From: Pyrococcus sp. NA2
Lineage (GTDB): Archaea; Methanobacteriota_B; Thermococci; Thermococcales; Thermococcaceae
Length of the DNA: 64,000 nt
Reading direction: 5' to 3'
NCBI RefSeq assembly: GCF_000211475.1
Contig: NC_015474.1
Span: 868,001 to 932,000, forward strand
In this document: positions 23,250-40,903 of the stretch, piece after piece
Position numbering within the stretch: position 1 is the stretch's first letter
Layout: each line of letters opens with the position of its first letter
The notes under the pieces: model-generated
The model's database searches: none
Told to the model about the DNA's origin: nothing
What the model saw: only the letters and a program-made list of their open reading frames with translations
Translations under genes and position numbers: made by a program

Positions 23250-24299
23250 TCAAAGAAGGGCGATTCTCGTTAGTGGATCGCTTAATTTGTACACCTCATT
23301 TTCTTCCACTATCCACCCCATCTTTTTCAGGTTCTTGAGGAGCTCGTATAACCGCGGCTCTGGAGTTCTAATTCCCCTAACGTAAAGGTAGTCCCTTAAA
23401 AGGCTCCATCTATTGTATCCCAGGGCTATTCCCCTCAGGATTTCGACATAGCGACGAGTTCTCCTCTCCAGTTCTTTAAGCTCTCCAAGAATTAACCCTC
23501 TTGCAGTCTCAAGTGTCCTTTCGAGGGCCTTCTCAGGATTCTTGCTTCTGAGATACTCAACTCCAAAGAGGACAAGCCATCCAGGAATACCATCCAGCAC
23601 CTCAACGGCTCTGTCTATAACCTCCTCTGGAACCTCGACGTTAACTTCCCTAAATCCGGTTATGAGAAATTCCCTTGAAATTTCGGGAGAAAATGGTTTA
23701 ACGTAAACTTCTCCCGCAATTCTTCCATAGAGTGGGCTCTTGTAGTCATCGATTCCAAGGAAGTCATGAAGAAGCCCCACTTCTGAACCCGTTAGGATGA
23801 ACCTTAGATTTGGAAGAGAGTCATAGGCATAGGCAAGGAGGGCCAACAGCTCTTTTCCTCCTCTGGAGCCATAAAAGCGGAGGTATTGAGCCTCATCAAA
23901 GGCTATTATGAACCTTCCCGTCCTCTCTCCAATTTCGTTGAGCTCTCTGAATATTTCTCTCAGCGGGGTTTCCTTGGGCTCGAGTTTGAGAAATTTCAGA
24001 TCAATTGACATCTTGAACTTTGACAGAATTTTCTCCAGAGAGTTAATCTTTGATCGAAGTTCCCTGGTTAAGTCTTCCTTAGTAATATGTCCGCTCTCCG
24101 CGTATAGCTCCCTGCAGTCGATTAATATTCCTGGGTTCTCGTTGAGATACGACTTGAGGATTGAACTTTTCCCTACCCTTCTTATTCCAAGGAGAAGGGT
24201 TATTGGATAACTCTCAACGCTTTTCTCAAGCTCTCTGAACTCTTTTTCCCTGTCAAAAATTTCCTCTCTCCTCTCCTTTGGCCTCAGGTCGAAGAGCAC
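23250..24299 (-). CDS. Archaeal STAND-like ATPase (PF01637 type) without nuclease domain
   Basis: The 349-aa protein carries the FDREKEFRELEK entry motif, Walker A LGIRRVGKSSILKSY (~40), Walker B IIAFDEAQYL (~140), a sensor LTGSEVG (~178), the region GRIAGEVYVKPFSP, and a C-terminal winged helix (RDYLYVRGIRTPEPRLYELLKNL). Unlike its relatives at 26760-32678 it ends after the wHTH and lacks the DUF234 nuclease-like part. The start is GTG 24299, close to its operator repeats. Function is unknown; binding of DNA by the wHTH and self-regulation are inferred. Confidence 0.8.
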   Translation of the reverse strand: MLFDLRPKERREEIFDREKEFRELEKSVESYPITLLLGIRRVGKSSILKSYLNENPGILIDCRELYAESGHITKEDLTRELRSKINSLEKILSKFKMSIDLKFLKLEPKETPLREIFRELNEIGERTGRFIIAFDEAQYLRFYGSRGGKELLALLAYAYDSLPNLRFILTGSEVGLLHDFLGIDDYKSPLYGRIAGEVYVKPFSPEISREFLITGFREVNVEVPEEVIDRAVEVLDGIPGWLVLFGVEYLRSKNPEKALERTLETARGLILGELKELERRTRRYVEILRGIALGYNRWSLLRDYLYVRGIRTPEPRLYELLKNLKKMGWIVEENEVYKLSDPLTRIALL

Positions 24300-24334
24300 T
24301 TACGCCACCGTAAGTTACTTACGGGGGCATAAGT
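24298..24334. promoter_or_regulatory. Double inverted repeat at the ATPase start codon
   Basis: ACTTACG-4 nt-CGTAAGT covers 24298-24315 and a second, weaker copy (ACTTACG...ATAAGT) covers 24317-24334, 19 bp apart. The GTG start of the minus-strand ATPase sits at the edge, and the minus-strand TATA (CTTATAACTT, ~24332-24341) overlaps the second copy. The divergent gene at 24382 has its own TATA (GTTTATTTAC, ~24352). Confidence 0.6.
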
Positions 24335-24381
24335 TATAAGGATTTCGAAAGGTTTATTTACTTAAGCAGATATTAACGGCC

Positions 24382-24933
24382 ATGCGGGTCTTCATCAAGG
24401 ATTATCTGCTTCCATGGTTGCTGGTCATCTTCTTTTGGGTTGCCATCTGGGTTTTCGTTCCCTGGAGGGGGATACACCTGTCACTTCCAAACGTTCTTTT
24501 GGTATTTGCTCTCCTGTCAATATTCCTTCTCGTGGCGCTTCACTTCGTTGGTAAGGCTCTTGAGCGCTACGGCTACTCGCAAGGGGACGTCAGAATGCTC
24601 CCTGAAATCATTGAGAGAGCCCATGGGCAACTTTATCTGGCCAGGGAAATTTTTGATATCATCGCAAGGGCGCTAATTTTCTGGGGACTGTTTTCCACGG
24701 CCGTTTTGCTGACAGAGAACCCCTTGTTGGGTATTGTGAACGCCGTTGCGATGTTTGCTCTGATATTCTCGTTTTTCGTTCTGCTTATCTCGATGGTAAT
24801 CTGGGTGCTATTTATTCCTTGCCTCTACAGGCTTCTCAGGGGAAGGGAACTCAACAGGAGTTTTCTTGTTGAGCTGGTGAAACTCAACTTTATTTTCACG
24901 GCGATTCTTCTAACGGTCAGCACTACATCATGA
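24382..24933 (+). CDS. Four-helix membrane protein, unknown family
   Basis: The 183-aa product has hydrophobic segments at ~10-32, ~36-58, ~90-110 and ~113-145, plus a final one near 165. I do not recognise it. A TATA box lies ~27 nt before the ATG, so the transcript would be leaderless. It overlaps the next small membrane gene (ATGA). It is divergent from the 23250-24299 ATPase and shares the region with that gene's operator, so it may respond to the same regulator. Confidence 0.6.
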   Translation: MRVFIKDYLLPWLLVIFFWVAIWVFVPWRGIHLSLPNVLLVFALLSIFLLVALHFVGKALERYGYSQGDVRMLPEIIERAHGQLYLAREIFDIIARALIFWGLFSTAVLLTENPLLGIVNAVAMFALIFSFFVLLISMVIWVLFIPCLYRLLRGRELNRSFLVELVKLNFIFTAILLTVSTTS

Positions 24934-25160
24934 AGCTAATCACCTCCGGAAGGAACGACTGGGTTTTCGATTCCCTCCTGAAACTTTCGGCCCTAAACTT
25001 CTTCTTTGGCTTGGTTGGCTTTTATGGGCCGAAAAGAATTGGAAAGCTGACTGCATTACTATTGACTCTCATCGTCTTCACCCAGCTGTGGGTTGCTTGG
25101 GGATTTTGGTTTAGGTCAGTAACCTTTAAGTATTTCGTGCATGCATGCACTTATTGGTGA
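24930..25160 (+). CDS. Small membrane protein (2-3 helices)
   Basis: The 76-aa product overlaps the previous gene by 4 nt (ATGA), suggesting translational coupling. It has two hydrophobic segments ([12 protein letters not shown] region and [21 protein letters not shown]). Its last codons contain the palindrome that probably regulates the downstream vapBC pair. Family unknown. Confidence 0.55.
25137..25150. promoter_or_regulatory. vapBC operator candidate
   Basis: GTGCATGCATGCAC is a perfect 14-bp palindrome at the end of the upstream gene. A TATA-like CTTTAAGTAT (~25123-25132) lies directly before it, so it falls on the expected transcription start of vapBC. VapBC complexes commonly repress their own promoters through such sites. 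Confidence 0.55.
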
Positions 25161-25399
25161 TGCCATTGGGCAAGACGATAACCATAGCCGATGATGTTTA
25201 TTATGAACTCGTCAAGATGAAGGGCAAGAAGAGCTTTTCAGAACTCCTAAGGGAGCTGATAGGGAAGAAAAAGAAGGGAAATCTTGACGTGCTCATGATA
25301 GCCTTTGGAACGAGAACTCCAGAAGAGGTCGAACAGCTCAAGAAAGAGCTCAAGGAGGTCGAGGAATGGATAAACTCTTGGACACCAGTGTCATTGTAG
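25160..25399 (+). CDS. vapB: VapB-family antitoxin (DUF217/UPF0330 type)
   Basis: From ATG 25160 (GGTG just upstream) the product is 79 aa: [19 protein letters not shown], then [18 protein letters not shown], and an acidic helical tail ([17 protein letters not shown]). This is the arrangement of archaeal VapB antitoxins, with an N-terminal DNA-binding/dimer part and a C-terminal toxin-neutralising tail. The frame continues upstream to 25145 but without a ribosome site. It overlaps vapC by 34 nt. Confidence 0.82.
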
Positions 25400-25740
25400 A
25401 GATCTTTGGAGGAAACAAAAAGGTTATAGAATCTCTTTCTCCTAATGAAACTTACGCGATCCCAACTATAGTTTTGTTTGAACTTTATTGTGGTAATTTA
25501 AAAGAACGGGAAGTGCTTATGCTCGAAATGATACCAAAAGTTGAGTTTAATGAGGAGGCTGCTAAGATAGCCGGTTGGATGTTCCAGGATTTGAAGGAAA
25601 AGGGAAAACTACCACCGTTGAAAGATCTCCTCATAGCTGCAACGGCGATAGCACATGACATGACCCTTATCACCTGTGATAGGGACTTTGAGATGTTTAA
25701 AGAATATGGCCTGAAAGTGAAGATCTTGGAAATTTGTTAA
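25366..25740 (+). CDS. vapC: VapC-family PIN-domain ribonuclease toxin
   Basis: The 124-aa PIN domain starts with [13 protein letters not shown] (first acidic Asp), then the Glu in [10 protein letters not shown] (~39), the Asp in [21 protein letters not shown] (Asp near 88 in the [11 protein letters not shown] segment, and DRDF at ~103). All four expected acidic positions are present, so it is probably active. It cleaves RNA, often tRNA or rRNA, and is held off by VapB. It overlaps vapB by 34 nt. Confidence 0.87.
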
Positions 25741-25799
25741 TTTTTGTAAACCTAGAACGCGGTCAGTTGTTAGGGAAAGAAGAATGTCCAAATTATTAT

Positions 25800-26735
25800 G
25801 CTTGCTCTTAATGTTTGTAAATCGAAAGGATGAGCTATCACTTCTTGAGTCACTCAGGAGCTTCTGATTCTCTACGGATACAGGCAAATTGGAAAAATGG
25901 AACTTGTGAAAAATTTATCCAGGGAAAAAGCGCAATCTACTTCTTAGCTGACAGGGAAGGGTCTGAAGTCAAGCGAGGCGATTTTATTGCGAGGTAGCAG
26001 ATGTTCTTGGACTTCCAAAACTTGAGGTACGGGATTTTAGAGAGGCATTTGATAGACAAAATCCTCGACGACCGCATAACTCAAACTTAAATCTCTGAAC
26101 CTCTTTCACGTTCGAGAGTACTTCAAAAACTCACCCATCGAAACTATCGTTAGAATATACTCCGTTACCGGTGGCGTTCCGATGTACTTCCGGCCCTTTA
26201 AGGAAAAACTTTGAGGAGGAGCTCCTTAGAATACTTGAGAACGCTGATGTCCCTGGAGCTCGTGAGGCGTGAGGTTCCAGTCACCGAATCGGAGAAGAGC
26301 GAGAAGACCTGCTATTTACCAACTTAGCCTTTTGGTTTTTGCTTTGTTAAACCTAACCGCAGAAAGATAGAAATTGGAACCTTCGAGAGGGGATTGAGAG
26401 GCTTTCAACACCTATGTGGGAGAGGTCTTTGAGGATATAGCCAGGCAGTTTTTAATCGAACTCAACAAACTCGGAAAGCTTCCTTTGGCATAAAAATGAA
26501 GAAATAGACTCTGTGGCCTTGAGCGGGAAAAGGGTTTGTTCGTTGAGGTTAAGTGGAAAAGCCTAAGCGAGAGGGAAGTACGTGGAATTTTAAGGAATTT
26601 GGAGAGAAAAGTGAGCTCGTTGAATTTGATGATCGTGTTGTTTATGGAATTAGTTACTAAGAGAGTTGAAGGAAAAGAGGGCTCAAGAGGGAAGACTAGT
26701 TAGTTTGGGATTCGACCGACTTCGAAATGTTTATA
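25800..26735 (+). pseudogene. Degenerate ATPase-DUF234 gene
   Basis: Fragments in changing frames match the intact copy downstream in order. They are FVNRKDELSLLESL and LILYGYRQIGKMELVKNL (Walker A with Thr/Ser replaced by Met), then VTGGVPMYF, NTYVGEVFEDIARQFLIELNKLGKLP, and WHKNEEIDSVAL with VEVKWKSLSEREVRGILR (each given as recognisable parts). It ends near LVWDSTDFEMF at ~26730. Multiple stops and frameshifts make it a pseudogene. It lies immediately upstream of the intact copy at 26760. Confidence 0.8.
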
Positions 26736-26744
26736 ACTTCAAAA

Positions 26745-26779
26745 AACTTACTCTTGAGTATGATACTCACGAGTAAGTT
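26745..26779. promoter_or_regulatory. 35-bp near-perfect palindrome over the ATPase start
   Basis: The arms AACTTACTC and GAGTAAGTT flank inner arms TGAGTAT/ATACTCA. Only one base pair and the central base break symmetry. The ATG at 26760 lies inside it, and a TATA-like GTTTATAAC (~26729-26737) precedes it. The symmetrical size fits a dimeric DNA-binding protein. Confidence 0.65.
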
Positions 26780-28139
26780 CGTTGATAGGAAGGCCGAGCT
26801 GAACTTCCTCAAGGAGCGCTACAACTCTGGGAAGGCCGAGCTGATAATCCTCTACGGGCGGAGGAGAATCGGGAAGACATACCTACTGATGAAGTTCCTG
26901 GATGAAGTCGGTGGGCTTTATCTCCTGGCTGAAGAGAACGAGATGAACCTCGAGGACTTTTCCACGAGACTGGCTGAGTACTTCAACGACCCCTTCCTAA
27001 AGGAAAATCCGATTCGGAGCTGGGGGGCCTTCTTCACCTATCTCGCTGGAAAGAGCAGGGAGAGACTCGTGGTGGTCATTGACGAGGTTCAATATCTCGC
27101 TAAGGCCGAAAAGAGCTTCCTCAGCACGCTTCAGAAATACTGGGATCTGTATTTGGCTAACACGAAAATAATGCTGATTCTTTGTGGTTCGCTCGGTTCA
27201 TTCATGGAGGGGATTCTCTCCGCGAAGTCGCCGATCTACGGGAGGAGAACGGGAGCGTGGAAGGTGGGAGAAATAGACTTCTTTAATTTGCTCAAATTCC
27301 ACCCTCTCGATATAGAAACCGCCATTAAGGTCTATGCAGTCTTTGGTGGCGTCCCCCAGTACTGGGCGGACTACGATCCAGAGAAGGACTTCTGGGATAA
27401 TATAAGGACATTAATCCTCTCGAAGGGGGCCAAGTACTACGACGAGCCGAAATATCTCCTCAAGGAGGAGCTTAGGGATGTTTCGAGATATTTCTCGATT
27501 CTTCGCGCCATAGCTCTCGGCTACACGCGCTTCGGCCAGATAGCAGATAAAGCGAAGATAGAAACTAAGAGCCTCGGTAAGTACCTCAACGTTCTGGAGG
27601 AGATGGGTTACATCAGGGAGGAAAAGCCCGTCGTGGGGAGGGGGAGAACAGTTTACAGGATAAATGACAATCTCTTCAACTTCTGGTTCCGCTTCGTCTT
27701 TCCGAGGAGGGACGAGATAGAGATGGGTTTCGACGTGGTTGAAGAGATAAGGGAGGAGTTTAACACCTATGTGGGACAGGTCTTCGAAGATATAGCCAGG
27801 CAGTTTTTGATTGAGTTGAATAGGGCGAGAAAACTTCCCTTCAGGTTCACTAAAATCGGTCGCTGGTGGCATAAAAACGAGGAGATAGATCTCGTTGCTT
27901 TGAACGAGCGGGAGAAGAAGGCTTTGTTCGTGGAAGTGAAGTGGAAGGAATTGAGCGATAGGGAAGTGCGTGGAATTTTAAAGGATTTAGAGAGAAAAAG
28001 CGAGCTCGTTGGACTTGAGAGCTGGAAGAAAAGTTATGGTCTTGTAGGGAAGAGGGTTGAAGGAAAGGAGGGGCTCAGGGAAGAGGGGTGGCTAGTGTGG
28101 GACTTAGAAGAGTTTGAAGGGCTTATAAAAAGTGCATGA
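26760..28139 (+). CDS. Archaeal ATPase with wHTH and DUF234 (PD-(D/E)XK-like) domain
   Basis: The ~459-aa protein begins FVDRKAELNFLKERY. Walker A ILYGRRRIGKTYLLMKF (~27) and Walker B VVVIDEVQYL (~110) form the ATPase, followed by a sensor ILCGSLGSFM (~140). A winged helix (~250-310, GQIADKAKIETKSLGKYLNVL) precedes the C-terminal DUF234 domain (~350-459). That domain contains RWWHKNEEIDLVALNERE and ALFVEVKWKELS, whose ID...EVK spacing matches PD-(D/E)XK nucleases. ATG 26760 fits the family length better than the 26727 start. The function, possibly genome defence or selfish regulation, is unknown. Confidence 0.85.
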   Translation: MILTSKFVDRKAELNFLKERYNSGKAELIILYGRRRIGKTYLLMKFLDEVGGLYLLAEENEMNLEDFSTRLAEYFNDPFLKENPIRSWGAFFTYLAGKSRERLVVVIDEVQYLAKAEKSFLSTLQKYWDLYLANTKIMLILCGSLGSFMEGILSAKSPIYGRRTGAWKVGEIDFFNLLKFHPLDIETAIKVYAVFGGVPQYWADYDPEKDFWDNIRTLILSKGAKYYDEPKYLLKEELRDVSRYFSILRAIALGYTRFGQIADKAKIETKSLGKYLNVLEEMGYIREEKPVVGRGRTVYRINDNLFNFWFRFVFPRRDEIEMGFDVVEEIREEFNTYVGQVFEDIARQFLIELNRARKLPFRFTKIGRWWHKNEEIDLVALNEREKKALFVEVKWKELSDREVRGILKDLERKSELVGLESWKKSYGLVGKRVEGKEGLREEGWLVWDLEEFEGLIKSA

Positions 28140-28184: not shown

Positions 28185-28217
28185 AATGATAATTGTCATT
28201 ATGATAATGGTGATTAT
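28185..28217. promoter_or_regulatory. Two inverted repeats upstream of ATPase 28221
   Basis: AATGATAATTGTCATT (28185-28200) and ATAAT-GGTG-ATTAT (28204-28217) lie in front of the ATG at 28221. A TATA-like GTTAAAATG (~28180) precedes them. The second element is nearly identical in sequence and in distance to the ATG to the one before the antitoxin at 57391. Confidence 0.55.
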
Positions 28218-28220: not shown

Positions 28221-29588
28221 ATGCCCCCATTTGTTGACAGAAGGGAGGAATTCAAGGCCCTTAAAGAGCGTTTAACGAGCAACAACTTTGAGCTTATCGT
28301 CATTTATGGGCGGAGGAGGGTGGGGAAGACTCGCCTTGTCCTCGAAGCCGTTAAAGACCTTCCCCACGTCTACTATCTGGCGGTTGAAGGCGACAATCTG
28401 AGGCACTTTCGAGAAACCGCTGAGAGAGTGTTTCCGGAAGTTAGATACTCTCGAGAAGATTGGGAGGGGACCCTACATGCCCTAAGAGGGAAAATCATTG
28501 TTATCGACGAGTTCCCGAACCTGATAAAGGAAAATCCTCAGATTCTCTCACTCCTCCAGAGGGTCATAGACTTGGACTTATCGAATTCTAACACCAAGAT
28601 CGTTCTCCTTGGCTCCTCGGTAAGTATGATGACCGAGAAGGTTCTGAGCTACAAGAGCCCCCTCTACGGCAGGAGAACCGGCTCGATGAAGCTCAAACCA
28701 ATGAACTTCTTTTCCCTCAAGGAGTTCTTTCCCAAAGCTAGTTGGGAGGAGCTCGTCGAGATCTATGGTATGACCGATGGAATTCCCTTCTACATAACCC
28801 AGGTTAAGCTCCCCTTCTGGAAGTGGCTGGAGGAAGAGCTTTCCAGCCCGGTGAGCTTCTTCAGGGACGAGGTGGATTTTCTCCTGAAGTACGAGTTCAG
28901 CGAGGTGAGCACCTACAAGAGAATTCTTGAGGCGATAGCCCTCGGAAAGACGACCCCCAAGGAGATAAGGGACTTCACAGGCCTGAGGCATTCGGATATA
29001 AGCCCCTACCTCAGGAATCTGATCGAGGCCGACCTAATAGTGAGGGAGGTGCCAGTTACCGATAAAAGGACATCAAAGAGAGGGCGCTACTATATTGCCG
29101 ACAACTTCCTAGCTTTTTGGTTTAGATTCATCTTCCCGAACCTCTCGCGCATAGAGGAGGGGACGTTCAGCGTTGAGGAGATAAGGGACTCCTATGACCA
29201 TTACCTTGGCTTTGTTTTTGAGAAGGTGGCGAGGCAGTATTTGGTAAAGCTCAATAAAGCCGGTGAACTTCCCTTTAAGTTCACTAAAATCGGCCGCTGG
29301 TGGCATAAAAATGAAGAGATCGATCTGCTCGCCCTGAATGAGTGGGAGAAAAAGGCTCTGTTCGGTGAGGTTAAGTGGAAGAAGCTTAGCGAGAGGGAAG
29401 TACGTGGAATTTTAAAGGATTTGGAGAGAAAAAGCGAGCTCGTTGGACTGGAAGGATGGGAAAAGCATTACGGTCTAGTGGCTAAGGAAATCCAGAATAA
29501 AAGTGCACTGAAAAGCGAGGGTTGGCTTGTATGGGATTTGGAGGATTTCGAAAGGCTTGCTTCTCCTGGGAGAATCTCCTACCTTTGA
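28221..29588 (+). CDS. Archaeal ATPase with wHTH and DUF234 (PD-(D/E)XK-like) domain
   Basis: The 455-aa protein has FVDRREEFKALKERL at the N-terminus, Walker A IYGRRRVGKTRLVLEA (~28), Walker B IVIDEFPNL (~97), the GRRTGSMKL region, and a wHTH (~245-300, RDFTGLRHSDISPYLRNL). The DUF234 domain has WWHKNEEIDLLALNEWE (~360) and ALFGEVKWKKLS. The nuclease-like half is closely related to those at 26760 and 31308, while the N-terminal half differs. Preceded by a distinct operator. Role unknown. Confidence 0.85.
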   Translation: MPPFVDRREEFKALKERLTSNNFELIVIYGRRRVGKTRLVLEAVKDLPHVYYLAVEGDNLRHFRETAERVFPEVRYSREDWEGTLHALRGKIIVIDEFPNLIKENPQILSLLQRVIDLDLSNSNTKIVLLGSSVSMMTEKVLSYKSPLYGRRTGSMKLKPMNFFSLKEFFPKASWEELVEIYGMTDGIPFYITQVKLPFWKWLEEELSSPVSFFRDEVDFLLKYEFSEVSTYKRILEAIALGKTTPKEIRDFTGLRHSDISPYLRNLIEADLIVREVPVTDKRTSKRGRYYIADNFLAFWFRFIFPNLSRIEEGTFSVEEIRDSYDHYLGFVFEKVARQYLVKLNKAGELPFKFTKIGRWWHKNEEIDLLALNEWEKKALFGEVKWKKLSEREVRGILKDLERKSELVGLEGWEKHYGLVAKEIQNKSALKSEGWLVWDLEDFERLASPGRISYL

Positions 29589-29774: not shown

Positions 29775-29827
29775 TGAGAACTCATACTTCTCAATCTTTA
29801 TAAAGGATTGAGAACTATAACTTCTCA
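29775..29827. promoter_or_regulatory. Two 19-bp inverted repeats flanking the TATA box of ATPase 29837
   Basis: TGAGAA-7 nt-TTCTCA occurs at 29775-29793 and again at 29809-29827, 34 bp apart. Between them lies the TATA box CTTTATAAAG (~29796-29805), and the ATG (29837) follows 10 bp after the second. The two copies have different central bases, so this is an evolved operator pair and not a simple duplication. Confidence 0.7.
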
Positions 29828-29836: not shown

Positions 29837-31030
29837 ATGAGGCTGGGCGATCTCACCTACATGAACCCCTGGTGGGAAGGGAGAGAGGACTACCACGTGA
29901 GGCGCTGGAGGGAACAGAGGTTACACTGGCGGCCGAAATGGCTGGAAAGGCTTTCGCTTAGGCCGTTCTCACTTAACTTCGTCCTCGGCCCGAGGCAGGT
30001 TGGAAAAACGACGGGAATAAAGCTCATGATCCAGGAACTCCTGAAAGATAACCCACCCGAGGCCGTTCTCTACATCAACGTCGAGGTTCTTCCAAGCCAC
30101 CACGAGCTCTTAAACCTCCTCCGTGAGTTCCAGGAGCTTAAAGAGAAGGAAGGCATCAAGATAGGATATGTCTTTCTCGACGAAGTGACTTCCCTTGAGG
30201 GCTGGTGGCGCGGGGTTAAACCGCTCATAGATGCTGGCCTTCTAGAGAGGGATGTGATTACGGTTACGGGCTCAAGCTCCCTGAGGGTCAGGAGGGACAT
30301 TGAACTCTTTCCGGGCAGGAGAGGGGGCGGAAGGATCATAGAGGTCATGCCCCTTTCCTTTCCAGAGTACTTAGAAATTAGGGGACTCAAGAAGCCGGAA
30401 CTTCACAGGGGGAAAGTCCTGAAGCTCTTCGAAGAGTATCTGACTACCGGCGGATTCCCGGGAGCAATAAACGGCCTTCCAATGGATGATCTCCTCGGGG
30501 CGTATATAGGAGATATTGTCCGCTTTGGTAAGAGTCTTGAGATAGCGAAGGAAACCTTTGCGGCGGTGATAAGGAGCGCTCCCTCGGCGACGAGCTTTAG
30601 GACTCTGGCCGGAATGACCTCCGGCTACTCCTACAAGGTGGTTCAGGACTATATAGAGTTTTTCACCGAGCTTTACATCCTTGGGATAGCCTATCTCAAG
30701 CAGGGAAATCAGATCATGTATAAGCGTGAGAAGAAGTTCTTCTTCCGTGATCCTCTCTTGGCGAGGCTCTTTGCGCTGTGGAGTGGGACAGAGCTGAGGG
30801 AAGATGCCCTCTACGAGTGGATCGTTCAAGAGCATCTATACCGTTGTTTTGGGGAGGTTTACTACTACCGGAACTCCTACGAGATCGATGCGATAGCAGG
30901 AAATCTTAAGGTAGAGGTAAAGGCCGGAAAGGCTCATAGGAAGTACCCGAAAAACGTAAGGGTGCTGGAGAAGGAGGATGTACCCTTCTTTCTGCTTGAA
31001 CTTACTCATGAGGGTACTTCTCGATTTTAA
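29837..31030 (+). CDS. AAA_14/DUF4143-type ATPase
   Basis: The 397-aa protein carries MNPWWEGREDYHVRRW, Walker A FVLGPRQVGKTTGIKLM (~55), Walker B VFLDEVTSLEGWWR (~115) and TGSSSLR (~148), then GRRGGGR with a FPEYLEIRG region. The C-terminal DUF4143-type part ends in YRNSYEIDAIAGNLKVEVKAGK, where ID...VEVK matches a PD-(D/E)XK-like core. It is shorter than its relatives but shows no frameshift. Operator copies precede it. Confidence 0.85.
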   Translation: MRLGDLTYMNPWWEGREDYHVRRWREQRLHWRPKWLERLSLRPFSLNFVLGPRQVGKTTGIKLMIQELLKDNPPEAVLYINVEVLPSHHELLNLLREFQELKEKEGIKIGYVFLDEVTSLEGWWRGVKPLIDAGLLERDVITVTGSSSLRVRRDIELFPGRRGGGRIIEVMPLSFPEYLEIRGLKKPELHRGKVLKLFEEYLTTGGFPGAINGLPMDDLLGAYIGDIVRFGKSLEIAKETFAAVIRSAPSATSFRTLAGMTSGYSYKVVQDYIEFFTELYILGIAYLKQGNQIMYKREKKFFFRDPLLARLFALWSGTELREDALYEWIVQEHLYRCFGEVYYYRNSYEIDAIAGNLKVEVKAGKAHRKYPKNVRVLEKEDVPFFLLELTHEGTSRF

Positions 31031-31225: not shown

Positions 31226-31307
31226 ACTGACAATCAGATCAGAGGAAGGGTCAATAACCTCTTACCTGGCGAAACCTTTTTTATTCATTTCGACTTGTAA
31301 TTATATT

Positions 31308-32678
31308 ATGAGGATTCGAAAATTTGTCAACCGCGAGAAGGAGCTCGAAACCCTGGAAAGGCTTTACGGGAGAGAAGGTTTTACTCTCGTCCTCGTTACT
31401 GGTAGGAGAAGGATCGGGAAGAGCAGGCTTGTTAGAGAGTTTTTAAAGGGAAAAAATGCCATAAGTGTTCAGTTCGAAAAGAGGCTCTGGGAGTACAATT
31501 TGAAGAAGCTTAACAAGGCTATAGGAGAACACTTTGGGATTCCAGCTCCAAACTTCTCCACCTTCAGTGATGCCTTCCACTTTATCGCCTCTCAGTCTAG
31601 GGAAAGGCTCATCGTATTCCTCGACGAGTTCTCCTACCTGCTCCGGTATTCTGAGGTGGAAGCCGAGTTCCAGAGTATAATTGATGAGATACTCCAGGAG
31701 AGCAATATTATGTTGATCCTCTCTGCTTCATCTGTTGGCCTGCTTAAGAGGAGCTTTTTCGAATACTCAAGCCCGCTCTACGGGAGGAGCGATGTCACAC
31801 TGAACCTCCAGCCCTTAGGCTTCAAGCATATCTTCGAGTGGTTTGAGGATATCTCACCAGAGGACGCCGTGAAAGTCTATGCAGTAACCTCCGGCGTTCC
31901 CCGCTACCTTGAGCTTTTCGAGGGAAGGAATGTTGATGAAGAAATCAAGGCCAACTTCTTCGACCCAAACGCCTTCCTCTTCCGCGAGGCCAAAGAGCTG
32001 CTTGAAGAGGAGTTTAGGGAGCCTGAAACGTACTACACCCTGCTTGAGGCGATAGCTAAGGGAAAGACGAGGGTGAACGAGATAGCTCAGCATGCCTTCC
32101 TTGAGCCCAAGAATACAGCAAGATACTTGAGGATACTTGAAGATCTTGGAATACTAAAGAGGGAGCTTCCCGTTGGGAGGAAGGCGAAGAGGGGTATCTA
32201 CCGCTTTAAAGATTTGTATTTTGCTTTCTGGTTTAGGTTTGTCGCCCCTTACTTCGAGGAGATAGAGAGCGGCTTCCCAGAAGGTGCGCTGGAAGACTTT
32301 AACGCAAACTTCAACCGCTACCTAGGCTACGCTTTCGAAGAGATAGCTAAGCAGTTTTTAATCGAAATCAACCGAGCTGGAAAGCTTCCCTTTAAGTTCA
32401 CTAAAATCGGTCGCTGGTGGCATAAAAACGAGGAGATAGATCTCGTTGCTTTGAACGAGCGGGGGAAGGGGGCTTTGTTCGTGGAAGTGAAGTGGAAAGA
32501 TTTGAGCGAGAGGGAAGCTAAGAGAATTTTGAAGGACTTGGAGAGGAAATCTAGATTGGTTGGACTGGAAGGGTGGGAGAAGTGGCATGGATTGGTTGCT
32601 AAGGGGATTGAGGGGAAGGAGGAACTTAGAGAAGAGGGTTTTCTGGTCTGGGACTTGGGGGATTTTGAAATATTTTAG
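31308..32678 (+). CDS. Archaeal ATPase with wHTH and DUF234 (PD-(D/E)XK-like) domain
   Basis: Starting at ATG 31308 the product is 456 aa: KFVNREKELETLERLYG, Walker A VTGRRRIGKSRLVREF (~27), Walker B IVFLDEFSYL (~103), ILSASSVGLL (~140), a wHTH (~250-300), then RWWHKNEEIDLVALNERG and ALFVEVKWKDLS. The frame continues upstream to 31173 but those residues are junk overlapping a remnant. The ~68 bp coding for the nuclease motif (32396-32463) are identical to 27845-27912. No palindrome as clear as in the neighbours was seen upstream. Confidence 0.83.
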   Translation: MRIRKFVNREKELETLERLYGREGFTLVLVTGRRRIGKSRLVREFLKGKNAISVQFEKRLWEYNLKKLNKAIGEHFGIPAPNFSTFSDAFHFIASQSRERLIVFLDEFSYLLRYSEVEAEFQSIIDEILQESNIMLILSASSVGLLKRSFFEYSSPLYGRSDVTLNLQPLGFKHIFEWFEDISPEDAVKVYAVTSGVPRYLELFEGRNVDEEIKANFFDPNAFLFREAKELLEEEFREPETYYTLLEAIAKGKTRVNEIAQHAFLEPKNTARYLRILEDLGILKRELPVGRKAKRGIYRFKDLYFAFWFRFVAPYFEEIESGFPEGALEDFNANFNRYLGYAFEEIAKQFLIEINRAGKLPFKFTKIGRWWHKNEEIDLVALNERGKGALFVEVKWKDLSEREAKRILKDLERKSRLVGLEGWEKWHGLVAKGIEGKEELREEGFLVWDLGDFEIF

Positions 32679-32824: not shown

Positions 32825-32908
32825 TGTGAAAGTGCATTTTCACAGCTTTCCCATTTTATGAAAGCAAACTTTCACAAATCTTATAAACTATGAAAGCCCA
32901 CCTTCACA
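32825..32908. promoter_or_regulatory. Triple 20-bp inverted repeat, 32-bp period, before ATPase 32910
   Basis: Copies of the pattern T(G/A)TGAAAG-N-CTTTCACA (the first ends TTTTCACA, the third CCTTCACA) occur at 32825-32844, 32857-32876 and 32889-32908. Starts are exactly 32 bp apart. The TATA box CTTATAAAC (~32880-32888) sits between copies two and three, and the ATG follows copy three. Three sites on one face of the helix suggest cooperative repression. Confidence 0.75.
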
Positions 32909-32909: not shown

Positions 32910-34232
32910 ATGGCAGTTAAGATAGTTAAGCTCATCAGGCACAATCCCTGGTGGAAGGGCGAAGGGTGGGAGGCAGAAGACCCGGACCTCTCAAAGGTAC
33001 CTAAAGGAGATAGGATACCTCGTAGGACGGTGAGATTGAAAAATGGGGAAATAACTCTTATACGGGGCGTTAGGAGGGCTGGAAAGAGCTTTTATCTCAA
33101 GACTATCATAGAGTCTCTCGTGAGGGAAGTTGACCCCTTAAAGGTGGTTTACATCCCCTGCGACCGCTTCACGAAGAGGGAAGTTAAGGGCTTCATAGAC
33201 GAGCTGAGGAGGAGGCACGGTGAAATATGTCTCTTCCTCGACGAGATAACGTACCTCAAAGACTGGAGGCTTCTCTTGAAGGAACTTGGCGAGGAAGGCA
33301 TCACAACAGTCGCCACTGGCTCAAACCCGGTTGAGCTCAAGAAAGAGAGCGAGCTACTCCCAGGGAGGGGAATAGAGGGCAATGAGTACTACTTCAACCC
33401 CCTCAACTTCAGGGAGTTCGCCCGCTACATGAACGACCGATTTCCCGATGTTGCTTTTACTTACAGGAACCCTGAGGTGGATAAGATTCTTCCCTGGTTC
33501 GAGGAGCTGGATGGTCTGTTTTATGCCTACCTCCAGACTGGTGGCTTTCCGGAGGCGGTGCTCGAGTTCAGGAAAAAGGGTAGGGTGAGCGAGGAGCGCT
33601 ACGAGGAGTTCATAAGGCTCGTCCTGGGCGAAATCGCGAAATCTGGAAAGAGCGAGGAGATAGCCAGGGAAATTCTTGAGACAGTTCTCAATCTGAAGGG
33701 CAACAGGGTGGACTACGTGAGCATAGCTAAGAAAGTTGGAGTTTCGCATCCAACGGTTAGGGAGTATCTCTCGACCCTCGAGAGCGCAAGGTTAATTTAT
33801 ACTCTCGAAGCTTGGGACGTCTCAAAGAAGCACCACGCCCACAGGAAGGAGAAGAAGATAGTCTTCCAGAGCCCACTGATAGCTTTGTCCCTGGCGAAGT
33901 ATATAGGAGAGGATCCCTTTGAGTTTCTTGAGGAAAACATCGAGTGGCTGGTTGAGGGAACTGTTGCCACACACGTTATATGGTCCCTTGAAGAACCAAT
34001 AATCCGGGAGAAGCACTCGTTTGCTGGCTTTTACTACGATTCAAGCAAGGAGTGTGACATTGTGATAAAAGAGGGCGGGAAGTTCTTCGGGATTGAGGTC
34101 AAGTACGGCGAGGTCAAGCGGAAGAGGTATCCCTTCCAGACCATATACATCTCGAAGGACGAAGTTGGCGAGGACGTGTATCCCGTTTCCCTCTACCTCT
34201 ACGGGCTGGAGAAAAGCGGGAGGTCAATATGA
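32910..34232 (+). CDS. AAA_14/DUF4143-type ATPase
   Basis: The 440-aa protein has an N-terminal RHNPWWKGEGWE, Walker A LIRGVRRAGKSFYLKTI (~50), Walker B LFLDEITYLKDWR (~107), VATGSNPVELKK (~132) and a central wHTH (~275-305, VSIAKKVGVSHPTVREYL). The C-terminal part has SSKECDIVIKEGGKFFGIEVKYG, a PD-(D/E)XK-like core. It is regulated by the triple repeat directly upstream. Role unknown. Confidence 0.87.
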   Translation: MAVKIVKLIRHNPWWKGEGWEAEDPDLSKVPKGDRIPRRTVRLKNGEITLIRGVRRAGKSFYLKTIIESLVREVDPLKVVYIPCDRFTKREVKGFIDELRRRHGEICLFLDEITYLKDWRLLLKELGEEGITTVATGSNPVELKKESELLPGRGIEGNEYYFNPLNFREFARYMNDRFPDVAFTYRNPEVDKILPWFEELDGLFYAYLQTGGFPEAVLEFRKKGRVSEERYEEFIRLVLGEIAKSGKSEEIAREILETVLNLKGNRVDYVSIAKKVGVSHPTVREYLSTLESARLIYTLEAWDVSKKHHAHRKEKKIVFQSPLIALSLAKYIGEDPFEFLEENIEWLVEGTVATHVIWSLEEPIIREKHSFAGFYYDSSKECDIVIKEGGKFFGIEVKYGEVKRKRYPFQTIYISKDEVGEDVYPVSLYLYGLEKSGRSI

Positions 34233-35821: not shown

Positions 35822-36064
35822 CCATGCTCGAAAGACTTTCAGCCTCGATTACTCCAACGAACTCTGAGGCGAAAGGAAAAGGGCCTTAGCGTTTGCCGAG
35901 GGTTCCTGTCAAGGTGCTCCCCCTGTGAACATACTAAGAATAGAGGTTTCAAAGCTCATAAAACTCCTCAACAAGAAGGACTTCCAGTTCAAGAGTCCCT
36001 GGGCGAGAGGGGCTTTAGTGATGTTATGTTGGTTTAATGCTCGAAAAGTTGGGCAAGTTTACAA

Positions 36065-36088
36065 AACAACTATTTATAAATAGTTGTT
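36065..36088. promoter_or_regulatory. Perfect 24-bp palindrome upstream of ATPase 36136
   Basis: The half-site AACAACTATTTA is followed by its exact complement in reverse. TTTATAAATA, a TATA-like core, lies in its middle, and the same TTTATAAATA recurs at 36106-36115, 33 bp further, close to the ATG at 36136. The first copy could be an operator overlapping an upstream promoter. Confidence 0.6.
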
Positions 36089-36135
36089 CAATATACTGGA
36101 CAAGGTTTATAAATAATGCTGAGGTATTAACCCCT

Positions 36136-37425
36136 ATGAGGGAAGATTTAGCCAAGGTTTTGGTGGAATGGCAGGAAACATGGACGCCCGAGCTCGTCGA
36201 GAGGGACTTTGACCTCTCCCTGATTCCGGATAAACCGAGAAAGGTTGTAACCTTCGCAGGTTGCCGGAGGGTCGGCAAAACCTACCTCATGTTCCAGCTC
36301 ATCAACGAATTGTCAAAAAAGGTTCCGAAGGAGGAGATATTCTACGTCAACTTCGAGGACGAAAGGCTTGAAAAGAAGGTTGAAACCCTAACCGAGCTCA
36401 TCCCAACGATAGAGGAGCTTTATGGAAGGAAAGAAAGGCTATACCTCTTTCTGGACGAAATACAGAACATTCCAAACTGGGATTCATGGGTGAGGAGAGT
36501 TCACGATTCGAGGAAGGATGTGAGACTCTTCCTGAGCGGTTCCTCCTCAAAGCTGTCAAGCAGAGAGATCCCGACATCACTCAGGGGCAGGGCGCTGACA
36601 TTTGAAGTTTTTCCTCTGAGCTTCCGGGAGTTTCTTAGGTTCAAGGGTTTTGAAATGCCGGAGAAACTGGATTTCAGCTCGAAGAAGCCGGTTCTCCTTA
36701 ACCTGTTGAGGGAGTACGTCCTTTACGGAGGCCTTCCCGAGGTTATTCTAACCGAAGACGTGAGGATTAAGAGGCTAATCGTCAGGGACTACTTCAACAC
36801 GATAATAGCCCTCGATATTGTGGAGAGGTATTCAATCAGAAATCCTGAAGAGCTCAGGGCATTCATCAGGCTTCTCCTTAACTCTGAGTACGTAAGCCTA
36901 AGTAAAATCGCTAAGACGATGAAGAGCATGGGCTATTCAATATCCAAATCAACCCTCGCAAACTACCTGAGGTACCTTGAGGAGTGCTACTTTGCATTTC
37001 CCCTTGAGGTTTATTCCCCAAAGGTAAAGCTCAGAATGCAGCACCCCAGAAAGATATACTTCATTGACACATCGTTCCTGACGTTTTTGAGCGTAAAGTT
37101 CAGCGAGAACATGGGGAGACTTATGGAGAACACGGTTTTCATCGAGCTTCTCAGGCGTGGAAAGGAGGTTAACTATGCTCTCGGGGAGAACTGGGAGGCT
37201 GATTTCGTTCTACCAGAGGAAGAAACCCTCATACAGGTTAGCTACGATGTTAGTGATGAGGAAACGCTAAGGCGTGAGGTGAATGCGCTAAGGAAGGCAT
37301 CAAGGGAATTCGACTTTAAAAATGCTTTGTTGATTACGTGGGATTCCGAAGGGAGGATAGAGGAGTGGAGAGTTACGATAGAGATCGTTCCATTGTGGAA
37401 ATTCCTGATTGGGGATTATACTTGA
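36136..37425 (+). CDS. AAA_14/DUF4143-type ATPase
   Basis: From ATG 36136 the protein is 429 aa: EDLAKVLVEWQETWTPELV, Walker A FAGCRRVGKTYLMFQL (~44), Walker B LFLDEIQNIPNWDSWVRRV (~105), LSGSSSKLSSREIPTSLRGR (~130), DUF4143 region from ~250. The acidic end NWEADFVLPEEETLIQVSYD has Gln-Val-Ser where the nuclease Glu-x-Lys would be, so this copy is probably not a nuclease. The frame runs upstream to 36037 but that includes the operator. Confidence 0.83.
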   Translation: MREDLAKVLVEWQETWTPELVERDFDLSLIPDKPRKVVTFAGCRRVGKTYLMFQLINELSKKVPKEEIFYVNFEDERLEKKVETLTELIPTIEELYGRKERLYLFLDEIQNIPNWDSWVRRVHDSRKDVRLFLSGSSSKLSSREIPTSLRGRALTFEVFPLSFREFLRFKGFEMPEKLDFSSKKPVLLNLLREYVLYGGLPEVILTEDVRIKRLIVRDYFNTIIALDIVERYSIRNPEELRAFIRLLLNSEYVSLSKIAKTMKSMGYSISKSTLANYLRYLEECYFAFPLEVYSPKVKLRMQHPRKIYFIDTSFLTFLSVKFSENMGRLMENTVFIELLRRGKEVNYALGENWEADFVLPEEETLIQVSYDVSDEETLRREVNALRKASREFDFKNALLITWDSEGRIEEWRVTIEIVPLWKFLIGDYT

Positions 37426-37930: not shown

Positions 37931-37957
37931 GAAGAATGTTCCACATTACGCTTGGTC

Positions 37958-38006
37958 TTACATTTTCCTTTTGAAAGCCTCGCCCTTTAGGGCGGGAAGG
38001 ATGTCA
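37958..38006 (+). mobile_element. IS200/IS605-type right-end remnant (TnpB element)
   Basis: The 3' end shows TTACATTTTC, TTTTGAAAGCCTCGCCC, TTTAGGGCGGGAAGGATGTCAG: a stem with the loop CCCTTTAGGG. I know this from the tails of archaeal TnpB-only elements in Thermococcales, where it belongs to the guide RNA region. No tnpA or tnpB lies within 1 kb; it is an orphan end. A second copy at 58011-58050 is inverted. Confidence 0.5.
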
Positions 38007-38013
38007 GATAACT

Positions 38014-39168
38014 CTACTCTTGCATCTTCCTTAATATTATGGTGATCATGACAAGAATGATGGCCGTAAGGATAATAGTGTAGTGAGTTTTCTTCGGTTC
38101 TCCCTCTATGCTTAGATTAACAGTGGGAACTTTAAGCTTCACAGGAAATAACTTCATTTCAAGGGGTTCCTCTTTAAAGTTGATCCTGATGGCGTAGCAC
38201 TTCGTTGTTTCTTCGTTCTGTTTAAGTGGAATAGTTATTATCGTTCCATTCGATTGAACAATTAAAGAACCTTTTATTATCCCTATGGCCTTTTCAGAAA
38301 CGTTAAGATATGTAAGCGGGTCTCCTTCGGGGTTTATGATGAAAGTTCCTGTAGTTGTACTAAAGGTGCAGATCCCCCCGTTGCAGAAGGCTCTTCGTAT
38401 CTTCATAATCCAAAAGGCGTCCCAATCACTCTCTCCTGGACAGTGATAGGAGTTGAACCATTTTATCTTTCCTCCTTGTGATACCTTCAATGCGAAGTAA
38501 TCGGCTAACCAAGGTGCATCACTCCCTCCTCCGTAAACGCCTGCAACTATTCCTTCGCCGTTGACAACATCGGGGCGATCATAATAACCCGTATTGACTA
38601 TTTTGACCCAGAGAAGAGTTCCATTCAAGGAGAGAGCGCCAAGAAGGAGGTGGGACTTTGGATCATCATTGAGTCTGATAGTTCCAACTACGAGAATTGT
38701 TCCATTAAGAGGGCCAAGTAGCTTCAATTTGGTACCATTTGCAATGAATTTCCTGGCCCAGAGCAGGTTTCCGTCTGGATTAATCAGCCCAACGATGTTA
38801 TCCTTTAGAAACGCAACATGGCCATTGGGCAAACCAATGGCATCGTCAACGCTTATGTTTTTTGCCCAAACAACTTTTCCATTATTGTCAACTTTAGCCA
38901 GAACTTCATCAAGGAGAAGGACACCGTTATCGGAGGAGCTAAGGCGTTCAAAGCTTATTCCCTTAATTTGAACTTTCCAAACTGGCTTAATATTCTCATC
39001 CAGCCTTATGAGAGTGTTGTTCTCTTTTAGGGCGTATATTCCATCTGAGATAATGACATCCTTGAACAGCAAGTTGAAGCTGATACCCATTGCGTTCAAT
39101 GTGGAAGAGATCACTAGAATAAGTACCCCTAATATGGCCATAACAACTTTCCACTCCACAAGGTCCAT
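38014..39168 (-). CDS. Membrane-anchored PQQ-type propeller protein
   Basis: The 384-aa protein has an N-terminal helix (KVVMAILGVLILVISSTLNAMG), propeller-type blades (GIYALKENNTLIRLDENIKPVWKVQIKG, in parts GIYALKENNTLIRLDE and VWKVQI), and a C-terminal helix (THYTIILTAIILVMITIILRK). It is probably exposed outside and held at both ends. The stop lies 7 nt after the IS-like end at 38006. Family only inferred from repeats. The ATG is at 39168. Confidence 0.68.
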   Translation of the reverse strand: MDLVEWKVVMAILGVLILVISSTLNAMGISFNLLFKDVIISDGIYALKENNTLIRLDENIKPVWKVQIKGISFERLSSSDNGVLLLDEVLAKVDNNGKVVWAKNISVDDAIGLPNGHVAFLKDNIVGLINPDGNLLWARKFIANGTKLKLLGPLNGTILVVGTIRLNDDPKSHLLLGALSLNGTLLWVKIVNTGYYDRPDVVNGEGIVAGVYGGGSDAPWLADYFALKVSQGGKIKWFNSYHCPGESDWDAFWIMKIRRAFCNGGICTFSTTTGTFIINPEGDPLTYLNVSEKAIGIIKGSLIVQSNGTIITIPLKQNEETTKCYAIRINFKEEPLEMKLFPVKLKVPTVNLSIEGEPKKTHYTIILTAIILVMITIILRKMQE

Positions 39169-39511
39169 CCTCCCATAATTTCACGTTATATGTGCTAGGT
39201 GAGTTATCTTTATGATTTTTTCTATTTTTATTTTATTAAGTTAAGCTATTCCCAAGTCTTTAAAGTGTATTCTTCTCTTTAAATAACTTGAAAGGCATAA
39301 CTTTAAAGTTATAGATAATTTCATTAATCTATTGTTTTTGTCTTTTTTGTTGAAAAATGGTTGTTCCATAATCTTCTCAGTTCTCCCTAGATTTGTTAAG
39401 GCCCTTCTTACATTCAGGAGTCAATTAGGTTGCAAGTGGTGAGGTTAAGATTTCTTTTTAAATAATTATAAGGATCAAAGTTCCGTTAACATCCAACTAA
39501 GTTTACCTTTA
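39169..39511. other. Gene-free AT-rich stretch
   Basis: Between 39168 and the operator of the next ATPase I see no open frame, RNA gene or repeat. It is rich in A/T and T tracts and probably holds the promoter of the minus-strand gene at 38014-39168. Confidence 0.6.
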
Positions 39512-39573
39512 TTTTGACCTTTTGACATTTGGCTATCAGAGTATTTATATATACTTTGTTATCAAAATATCAA
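39512..39573. promoter_or_regulatory. Inverted array of TTTTGAC-type sites around the TATA box of ATPase 39584
   Basis: TTTTGAC-C-TTTTGAC (39512-39526) faces ATCAAAA-TATCAA (39561-39573), and the TATA box TATTTATATATAC (39542-39553) lies between. Each side holds two half-sites in tandem. Confidence 0.5.
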
Positions 39574-39583
39574 GGATATAAAA

Positions 39584-40903
39584 ATGGAGGACTTGATTGT
39601 CATACAAAATCCCTGGTGGATAGAGCCAAGTGTAATATACGAGGACGAACGTGTTAAAAAAGCCCTCTCCCAGGAACCTGGGATTGGCTACCGCTTTGAA
39701 CAAGTAAACAAGATCTTAATAGGCCCGAGACAGGTCGGTAAGACTACCTACATGAAGCTCTCCATAGCAAACCTTATTGAAGCAGGAGTCGACCCAAGAA
39801 ACATTCTCTACTTCTCGTGCGATCTCCTTAAAGACTATCGTGAGATAGTTTCCGTTGTCAAATCCTTTCTCCGTAGCATAAAGGGAAGGGCATACGTCTT
39901 TCTTGATGAGGTCACCTTCGTTGATAACTGGGAGCGAGCAGTTAAGTTCCTCCTTGATTCTCCTCTTGCCTCAAGGATGGTGCTTCAAGTTACGGGTTCG
40001 ACTTCAGCTGGGCTAAAGAAGGAGAGCTTTCCTGGAAGGAATATAAAGGTTGAGGAATTCCTTCCTCTTGACTTCAGGATGGTTTCCCTTATCTTTGAAC
40101 CAAAGCTAAAGAACCTCGAGCTTCCCCACAGGTTTCCAAGAACAAGTCTGGAATTCTACGAAAATGCTCTCGAACTCTATCCATATCTAGATGTCCTAAG
40201 CGGGGCACTAAACTTTTATCTCTCCTCTGGAGGTTATCCAAGGTCGATATATGAATCGCTGGAAGGTGGAATAACTTCGGAGACCTACGAGATGCTCTAC
40301 AATGCAACAATTTTCGACGTCGTTAAGTTGGGGAGGAGTGAGAGAATAGCCCTCCCAATAATACTGGGTCTCCTGCGCCGTTATGGCGATAGGATAACTC
40401 TTAACTCCATAGCTAAAGAGCTTGAAATTGGCTCTCATGTTACCGTGAGGGACTACCTTGAGCTCTTTGAAGAGCTTTTCATTGGGCGAAACTATTTCCA
40501 AATTAAACTTCACGATTTCACTCCGCTGTTTCGAAAGGAGCGCAAGTTTTACTTTACGGATCCACTAATACTTCAAACTTTCAAGAGAACTTTTGGAATC
40601 GGACCTGGCATTGATAGGATGATCGAGGGGATAGTCGGTGAGCACTTAAAGCGACTCTATCAAACTTACTTCTTCAGCGGTTCCAAGGAGGTGGACTTTG
40701 TGACACCTCACTTTGGAGTTGAGGTGAAGTGGAGAGGTAAAGTTAAGCCCTCGGACTTTCCAAGGGTTGGGATAAAAGAGAAGATACTCCTCTCAAGGGA
40801 CAAACTGGAGTTCATTGAAAGTAAAAACCTTGCAATAATTCCAGTTCCCCTATTCCTCTTCCAGCTTCAAACCTCGAGCTCTAGGATCATCTTAAGGTCA
40901 TAG
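39584..40903 (+). CDS. AAA_14/DUF4143-type ATPase
   Basis: The 439-aa protein contains IQNPWWIEPSV, Walker A LIGPRQVGKTTYMKLS (~48), Walker B VFLDEVTFVDNWERAV (~105), TGSTSAGLKKESFPGR (~138), a wHTH (~270-300) and SGSKEVDFVTPHFGVEVKWRGK, with the VD...VEVKW core of PD-(D/E)XK-like nucleases. It follows its own operator array. It stops 23 nt before the convergent RNR gene. Confidence 0.87.
   Translation: MEDLIVIQNPWWIEPSVIYEDERVKKALSQEPGIGYRFEQVNKILIGPRQVGKTTYMKLSIANLIEAGVDPRNILYFSCDLLKDYREIVSVVKSFLRSIKGRAYVFLDEVTFVDNWERAVKFLLDSPLASRMVLQVTGSTSAGLKKESFPGRNIKVEEFLPLDFRMVSLIFEPKLKNLELPHRFPRTSLEFYENALELYPYLDVLSGALNFYLSSGGYPRSIYESLEGGITSETYEMLYNATIFDVVKLGRSERIALPIILGLLRRYGDRITLNSIAKELEIGSHVTVRDYLELFEELFIGRNYFQIKLHDFTPLFRKERKFYFTDPLILQTFKRTFGIGPGIDRMIEGIVGEHLKRLYQTYFFSGSKEVDFVTPHFGVEVKWRGKVKPSDFPRVGIKEKILLSRDKLEFIESKNLAIIPVPLFLFQLQTSSSRIILRS

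What the first reader, a model, noticed from the sequence alone, without database searches (positions are those of the whole stretch)
23250..40903. Family of ATPase-nuclease genes, each with its own palindromic operator: a candidate system
Eight intact P-loop ATPase genes (three with DUF234 and four with DUF4143 ends, one without) lie between 23 and 41 kb. Apart from the one at 31308, each has its own inverted repeat sitting on the TATA box, likely transcription start, or start codon: 24298, 26745, 28185, 29775, 32825, 36065, 39512. The sequences differ from gene to gene. Each protein has a wHTH between ATPase and nuclease-like part. I infer that each ATPase binds and represses its own promoter, like a toxin-antitoxin module in one chain. 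Sites and domains are seen; the self-regulation and any defence or selfish role are inferred. PF01637, DUF234 and DUF4143 families are known; their function in archaea is not.
Basis: partly seen in the sequence, partly recalled or inferred. Interest (0 to 1): 0.9.

Follow-up and report, generated by a model that had tools for sequence, protein, structure and literature searches.

The report
ATPase-nuclease genes with private palindromic switches
A very common but uncharacterised family of ATPase-nuclease genes (candidate virus-defence genes) carries, in front of most genes examined in a family of heat-loving archaea, its own distinct repeated palindrome around the promoter, so each protein probably switches off its own gene; these palindromes can even persist where the gene is missing.

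Summary
Confirmed, corrected and extended. The window holds eight intact ATPase genes: one ATPase+winged helix, three with DUF234, four with DUF4143-like ends. The palindromes are mostly tandem dyads flanking the TATA box and reaching the start codon. In other Thermococcaceae each orthologous group keeps its own dyad while surrounding DNA diverges (g6 14/14 relatives, g4 29, g3 about 27). Exact operator patterns are rare (9 to about 70 places in 94 genomes); reversed control patterns give none. Most of about 30 further ATPase groups have other dyads in the same place; distant archaeal and bacterial relatives of g7 show them too. Two listed palindromes needed correction (g7, g8) and g5 has a weak one. 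Self-repression by the built-in winged helix is the best explanation; binding is untested. The families are already listed as unvalidated defence candidates PDC-S27 and PDC-S01; the operator rule was not found in the paper library. New and unexplained: g6- and g4-type operators also sit, at one fixed chromosomal site each, in 17 and 12 genomes lacking the gene. A toxin-antitoxin-like or defence role remains inference.

The parts
23250..24299 (-). g1: ATPase_2 + C-terminal winged helix (MCM_C-like), no nuclease part
   Evidence: ORF; Pfam
24298..24334 (.). g1 operator: two tandem dyads ACTTACGccacCGTAAGT (24298-24315) and ACTTACGggggCATAAGT (24317-24334), across the GTG start
   Evidence: paralogs L010, L011, L013 have the same layout with other sequences
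26760..28139 (+). g2: ATPase_2 + winged helix + DUF234 (start most likely ATG 26760)
26745..26779 (.). g2 operator: 35-bp inverted repeat AACTTACTC...GAGTAAGTT made of dyads TACTCTTGAGTA (26749-26760) and TACTCACGAGTA (26764-26775), over the start codon; TATA TTTATAA at 26730
   Evidence: ortholog L337 keeps it
28221..29588 (+). g3: ATPase_2 + winged helix + DUF234
28189..28217 (.). g3 operator: ATAATtgtcATTAT (28189-28202) and ATAATggtgATTAT (28204-28217), between TATA-like element and ATG
   Evidence: conserved in about 27 orthologs as TGATAATnnnnATTATnATAATGGTGATTATCA
29837..31030 (+). g4: AAA_14 + winged helix + DUF4143-like nuclease part (ID...EVK motif)
29775..29827 (.). g4 operator pair TGAGAACTcatACTTCTCA (29775-29793) - TATA TTTATAAA (29797-29804) - TGAGAACTataACTTCTCA (29809-29827)
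   Evidence: 29 orthologs keep both dyads and the TATA box; pattern found in 48/94 genomes, control 0
31308..32678 (+). g5: ATPase_2 + winged helix + DUF234
31288..31321 (.). possible weak g5 operator TTTCGA...TCGAAA across the ATG (paralog L006: TCGAATCGTG...CATGATTCGA)
   Evidence: not significant in the window copy
32910..34232 (+). g6: AAA_14 + winged helix (recognition helix residues 280-292) + DUF4143 nuclease-like end
32825..32908 (.). g6 operator array: three dyads of type TNTGAAAG....CTTTCACA at 32825-32844, 32857-32876, 32889-32908 (32-bp period), TATA CTTATAAA at 32880 between the last two, ATG 32910 right after the last
36136..37425 (+). g7: AAA_14 + winged helix + DUF4143 (third nuclease motif is QVSY, not ExK)
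36084..36103 (.). g7 conserved operator TTGTTCAatatacTGGACAA, between two TATA-like elements (36072-36081 and 36106-36113)
39584..40903 (+). g8: AAA_14 + winged helix + DUF4143
39522..39573 (.). g8 operator pair, degenerate here: TTGACATTTGGCTATCAG (39522-39539) - TATA - TTTGTTATCAAAATATCAA (39555-39573)
   Evidence: orthologs have clean TTGATA...TATCAA pairs flanking TTTATATAT
35832..36023 (+). remnant of the methyltransferase gene that lies downstream of g6 orthologs in other genomes
   Evidence: tblastn 52% over 75 aa; intact copy at G000:C1:1834757-1835683

Best explanation
Each of these ATPases is a single-chain, self-repressing gene unit. The winged helix (between ATPase and nuclease-like domain; C-terminal in g1) recognises a private palindrome of roughly 14-21 bp, usually present in two to five copies that straddle the TATA box and the start site. 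Occupancy blocks TBP, TFB or RNA polymerase, so the protein keeps its own level low; dyads in register (32-34 bp, three helical turns, for g4 and g6) suggest cooperative binding by an oligomeric AAA+ protein. Diversification of the recognition helix gives each paralog an insulated switch, so many copies can coexist in one genome and move as gene-plus-operator units. Shown: operators, their conservation, position, specificity and group-specific sequence; presence and predicted fold of the winged helix. Inferred: that the encoded protein is the binder, that binding represses, and that a trigger (for example foreign DNA, or a change of nucleotide state) releases the operator and frees the nuclease part.
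For: Ortholog footprints: g6 14/14 relatives, g4 29, g3 about 27 and g7 about 20, g8 about 20. Most of 34 ATPase clusters have different dyads in the same place. Specificity: 106, 86 and 18 strand hits for three operator patterns in 94 genomes, 0 for reversed controls. Own-genome statistic p=6e-7. Diverse archaeal and bacterial relatives of g7 score above other genes on the same contigs (p=1e-6). AlphaFold model of g6 (pLDDT 87) has a winged helix with recognition helix 280-292. In the g4/g6/g8 superfamily operator similarity follows the recognition helix (partial rank correlation 0.40) more than the ATPase (-0.02) or C-terminus (0.16); L215 resembles g4 in ATPase and C-terminus but has a g6-like recognition helix and a g6-like operator.
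Against: No binding or expression data. Recognition-helix covariation is weak in the DUF234 and g7 families (0.17, 0.18), a first measure showed none between clusters, and pairs are not independent. Operators persist at fixed sites in genomes that lack the gene, so something other than the cis-encoded protein may bind them, or gene loss is very recent. A few paralogs (L012, L014, L029) have no clear dyad.
Confidence: 0.78

Rival explanations
1. Self-repressed inducible defence effector (an extension of the best explanation rather than its opposite): the function is anti-virus or anti-plasmid. A viral trigger lifts self-repression, expression rises and the PD-(D/E)XK-like part cuts nucleic acid, comparable with single-gene STAND/Avs-type sensors.
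For: The proteins match PADLOC candidate families PDC-S27 (DUF234, E to 1e-51) or PDC-S01 (DUF4143, E to 1e-113); a 2026 survey of archaeal immunity lists both as ATPase + PD-(D/E)XK single-gene candidates with validation pending (PMC12988326). Patchy distribution, pseudogenes and repeated loss. Fold hits include ORC, RuvB and STAND proteins.
Against: No defence assay exists; besides a VapBC pair and other ATPases no defence neighbours were seen; g7 lacks the canonical lysine of the nuclease motif.
Confidence: 0.45
2. The palindromes are bound by other, host-encoded regulators and the ATPases are ordinary members of their regulons.
For: g6- and g4-type operators are conserved in genomes without the gene.
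Against: More than 30 gene groups would each need a separate dedicated regulator; dyads are nearly absent elsewhere in the genomes; where the gene is present, the element always shared with each dyad type is the ATPase gene itself.
Confidence: 0.12
3. The dyads are recombination or homing sites used by the ATPase-nuclease to move, and only secondarily operators: the ORF toggles between operator and next gene at a fixed home site.
For: Fixed sites with empty, operator-only and filled states: g6 lies exactly between its array and the methyltransferase promoter, g4 between its operator pair and the 3' end of a yjbQ-like gene; states are interleaved on gene trees.
Against: Filled sites keep intact dyads, unlike homing sites that insertion destroys; the T71-type orphan in G086/G087 keeps traces resembling the gene's first codons and G092 keeps a g6 tail, both pointing to simple gene loss; dyads lie systematically around TATA boxes.
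Confidence: 0.08

Closest known systems
PDC-S27 (PADLOC candidate; ATPase_2 + DUF234)
   Same: g2, g3, g5 match with E 3e-42 to 1e-51 over nearly full length
   Different: known only as an unvalidated single-gene defence candidate; no description of a built-in operator was found in the library searched
PDC-S01 (PADLOC candidate; AAA_14 + DUF4143)
   Same: g7 E 1e-113; g4, g6, g8 E about 1e-30 to 1e-33
   Different: as above; g4, g6 and g8 form a distinct subfamily with an N-terminal NPWW motif and a canonical ExK motif
Type II toxin-antitoxin operons
   Same: self-repression through a palindromic operator at the promoter, mobile units, many paralogs per genome (general knowledge)
   Different: one chain, no separate antitoxin, toxicity not shown
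ORC/Cdc6, RuvB and STAND AAA+ proteins with winged helix; 2QEN-type archaeal ATPases
   Same: fold of ATPase plus winged helix (2qen_A sequence hit)
   Different: added PD-(D/E)XK-like end; sites at the own promoter rather than at replication origins

Membership tests
PDC-S27 / DUF234 ATPases | near full-length match to PADLOC and Pfam models (ATPase_2 + DUF234) | tested here: met
   g2, g3, g5:
PDC-S01 / DUF4143 ATPases | match to PADLOC PDC-S01 and to AAA_14 + DUF4143 | tested here: met
   g6, g7, g8 met; g4 met for PDC-S01 and AAA_14, DUF4143 below cut-off but alignable
Anti-virus defence system | measured protection against virus or plasmid | not testable with these tools
   literature states validation pending
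PD-(D/E)XK nuclease | D...(D/E)xK motif in the C-terminal domain | tested here: met
   E381, D383, E396 invariant and K398 nearly so in alignment A1; g7 has QVSY instead; activity untested
Autoregulated DNA-binding protein | conserved operator at the own promoter | tested here: met
Autoregulated DNA-binding protein | the encoded protein binds that operator and represses | not testable with these tools
   only indirect covariation, moderate in one of three families
Type II toxin-antitoxin system | toxin plus separate antitoxin encoded together | tested here: not met
   each unit is a single gene; neighbours of g6 and g4 orthologs are housekeeping genes
Homing endonuclease | insertion interrupts the recognition site | tested here: not met
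   filled g6 and g4 sites keep intact dyads

The most novel reading that the evidence does not exclude
Operators of these ATPases are maintained chromosomal elements in their own right: each type has one home locus (OTC|methyltransferase for g6, the yjbQ 3' end for g4) where the operator array stays under selection while the ATPase ORF is repeatedly lost and regained next to it, so the array acts as a docking or control site for swapping defence genes, or serves an unknown trans-acting binder.
Probability: 0.2. Interest if true: 0.87.

Novelty: new variant of a known kind. Interest (0 to 1): 0.74.

Why it matters
PDC-S01 is reported as the fourth most common defence-type gene in prokaryotes and PDC-S27 as enriched in archaea, yet neither has a tested function (PMC12988326). 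A general rule that these genes carry private operators gives an immediate experimental handle: what the protein binds, when it lets go, and what induces it. It also supplies many natural protein-DNA specificity pairs for learning winged-helix recognition, and mutually insulated promoter/repressor parts for hyperthermophiles. The orphan operators raise a new question about how such genes come and go.

Tried and rejected
Single-sequence palindrome statistics alone: too weak for g3, g5, g6, g8; replaced by ortholog footprints. Correlating operator similarity with the recognition helix: a first measure gave no signal between clusters (rho about 0), a second gave 0.40 partial correlation in one family only, so it is used as weak support. 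Carriers on plasmids and phages: distant homologues exist (48 and 16 records for g7, 140 plasmids for g3), the closest a 62% match on the 58-kb element of Methanocaldococcus jannaschii; no support for a present plasmid vehicle. Literature terms DUF234, DUF4143, COG1373, COG1672, PF01637, PDC-S01: no paper describing operators. The idea that arrays are targets destroyed by insertion was dropped because filled sites keep them. Divergence of orphan arrays as proof of selection without the gene was not accepted, because repeated recent losses would leave the same pattern.
Full report
1. What is there. The window is G000:C1:868001-932000 of a 1.86-Mb single-contig genome, with 94 genomes of the same family available for comparison. 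Between 23,250 and 40,903 lie eight intact ATPase ORFs. Pfam: g2, g3, g5 carry ATPase_2 and DUF234; g6, g7, g8 AAA_14 and DUF4143; g4 AAA_14; g1 ATPase_2 and a C-terminal MCM_C-like winged helix. An alignment of 27 relatives shows that g4 has the same winged helix and nuclease-like end as g6 and g8, with an invariant E.D...EVK motif, while g7 has QVSY in place of EVK. The AlphaFold model of g6 (27 sequences, mean pLDDT 87) has an AAA+ core, a winged helix (H249-262, H269-276, recognition helix H280-292, wing 296-319) and a C-terminal alpha/beta domain; the best PDB folds are ORC, RuvB, RFC and STAND proteins.

2. The palindromes. Exact sites are listed under parts. Most are tandem: two dyads for g1, g2, g3, g4, g8, three for g6, with a TATA box between or beside them and the ATG within or just after the last dyad. 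Against shuffles, g1, g2, g4 and g7 exceed chance individually. Against 370 upstream regions of other genes in the same genome, 19 distinct ATPase genes have better dyads (p=6e-7; 9 above the control 95th percentile, 1 expected). Across 245 loci of many genomes the difference is larger, but those rows are related to each other.

3. Orthologs. g6: fourteen full-length copies in other genomes (73-80% identical) keep 2-5 dyads at a 32-bp period, with TATA between the last two and the ATG directly after the last; dyad arms are 96% conserved, centres 51%, flanks 58%. g4: 30 copies keep TGAGAACTnnnAnTTCTCA - TTTATAAA - TGAGAACTAnnAnTTCTCAGGTG - ATG. g8: TTGATA...TATCAA pairs around TTTATATAT. g3: TGATAATnnnnATTATnATAATGGTGATTATCA. 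Other groups have other dyads, for example TTTGCAGTnnnACTGCAAA, TTGGTAATnnnATTACCAA, TTGCCGAACGnnGTTCGGCAA, TTGAAAGTTAACTTTCAA and a 49-bp GTTAAGTATnGAGGTAAA repeat around TATA. g5 and its paralog L006 share a TTCGA-type repeat across the ATG.

4. Specificity. Exact operator patterns searched in 94 genomes gave 106 strand hits (g6 type), 86 (g4 type) and 18 (T71 type, nine places); the reversed control gave none in any. The hits are at the ATPase promoters or at the orphan sites below, with a few singletons. A scan of all genome contigs with the g7 profile returned relatives from many archaeal and bacterial phyla; their upstream dyads exceed those of other genes on the same contigs (79 vs 230, p=1e-6), for example TATCCTTGTTAACAAGGATA, with a second imperfect copy upstream, in a Thiomargarita MAG and TCGTTTACTATAGTAAACGA in a Bathyarchaeon. 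So the rule reaches beyond Thermococcaceae, at least for this family.

5. Who binds. The encoded protein is the natural candidate: the dyad type follows the gene group and its winged helix is well formed. Operator similarity in the g4/g6/g8 superfamily correlates with recognition-helix identity after correcting for ATPase and C-terminal identity (0.40 vs -0.02 and 0.16); the other two families give weak values. L215 is 54-60% identical to g4 in ATPase and C-terminal parts but 15% in the recognition helix (46% to g6), and carries a g6-like operator. This is support, not proof.

6. Orphan operators. g6 orthologs in most genomes sit between an OTC-like gene and a methyltransferase gene. In 17 genomes without g6 the array is still there, 2-5 units at about 32 bp, arms 94% conserved versus 51% in the centre; in others it is decayed or absent. 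The g6 block lies exactly between the last upstream dyad and the TATA box of the methyltransferase gene, and G017 (array only) and G051 (array + g6) have identical three-unit arrays. On an OTC tree the states are interleaved. The g4 type behaves alike: g4 lies tail to tail with a yjbQ-like gene, and in 12 genomes without g4 (one decayed) the operator pair with its TATA box lies at the yjbQ stop. Over 13 orphan pairs, including three in genomes with a g4 elsewhere, arms differ by 7% versus 56% in the centre, against 4.5% and 58% in g4+ loci; states are interleaved on a yjbQ tree. A T71-type pair in G086 and G087 is followed by traces resembling the gene's first codons, and G092 keeps a g6 tail beside its array, which indicates gene loss. 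Repeated recent loss explains much; whether arrays are also selected without the gene cannot be decided here, because independent recent losses would leave the same pattern.

7. Known or new. PADLOC models place the proteins in PDC-S27 or PDC-S01 (g1 only weakly, 1.6e-9). A 2026 survey reports both as abundant single-gene candidates, ATPase fused to PD-(D/E)XK, validation pending (PMC12988326). The open-access library holds one paper naming DUF4143 and none found on their regulation; most subscription papers are not in it. Membership in these families is therefore established, the operator rule and the orphan operators appear undescribed, and function stays open.

8. Verdict. Observation confirmed with corrections; self-regulation well supported; toxin-antitoxin analogy and defence role not shown.

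Noticed in passing
window 25145-25740 (+): A VapB antitoxin gene and a PIN-domain toxin gene (VapBC pair) lie directly before the ATPase cluster.
   Followed up: no
window 26071-26726 (+): A frameshifted DUF234 ATPase pseudogene precedes g2 (tblastn pieces of g2, g3, g5), so the cluster is duplicating and decaying.
   Followed up: partly
window 52756-53886 (+): A further gene distantly similar to g3 and g5 (27-29% identity, E 1e-13) lies outside the named region.
   Followed up: no
L499:2527-3837 (-) (G000:C1:957526-958836): The window genome's own copy of the T71-type ATPase lacks the usual N-terminal NPWW reading frame and may be frameshifted there, while its operator pair is intact.
   Followed up: partly
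L286:14977 (-); L287:7096 (-) and 13007 (+): A few control genes also show strong paired dyads in front of them (for example TTGTTCCATATATAGAACA-type sites between two divergent genes); possibly other self-regulated genes.
   Followed up: no
L133:4311-4631; L064:2820-3296; L060: A small gene of about 106 aa in L133, and a non-coding or remnant stretch of about 480 bp in L064 and L060, lie between the g6 array or g6 and the methyltransferase gene.
   Followed up: no
L479, L155, L158: In one clade g4 with its own operator has an additional orphan operator pair downstream at the yjbQ end (op-g4-op direct repeat), suggesting re-insertion beside an old site.
   Followed up: partly
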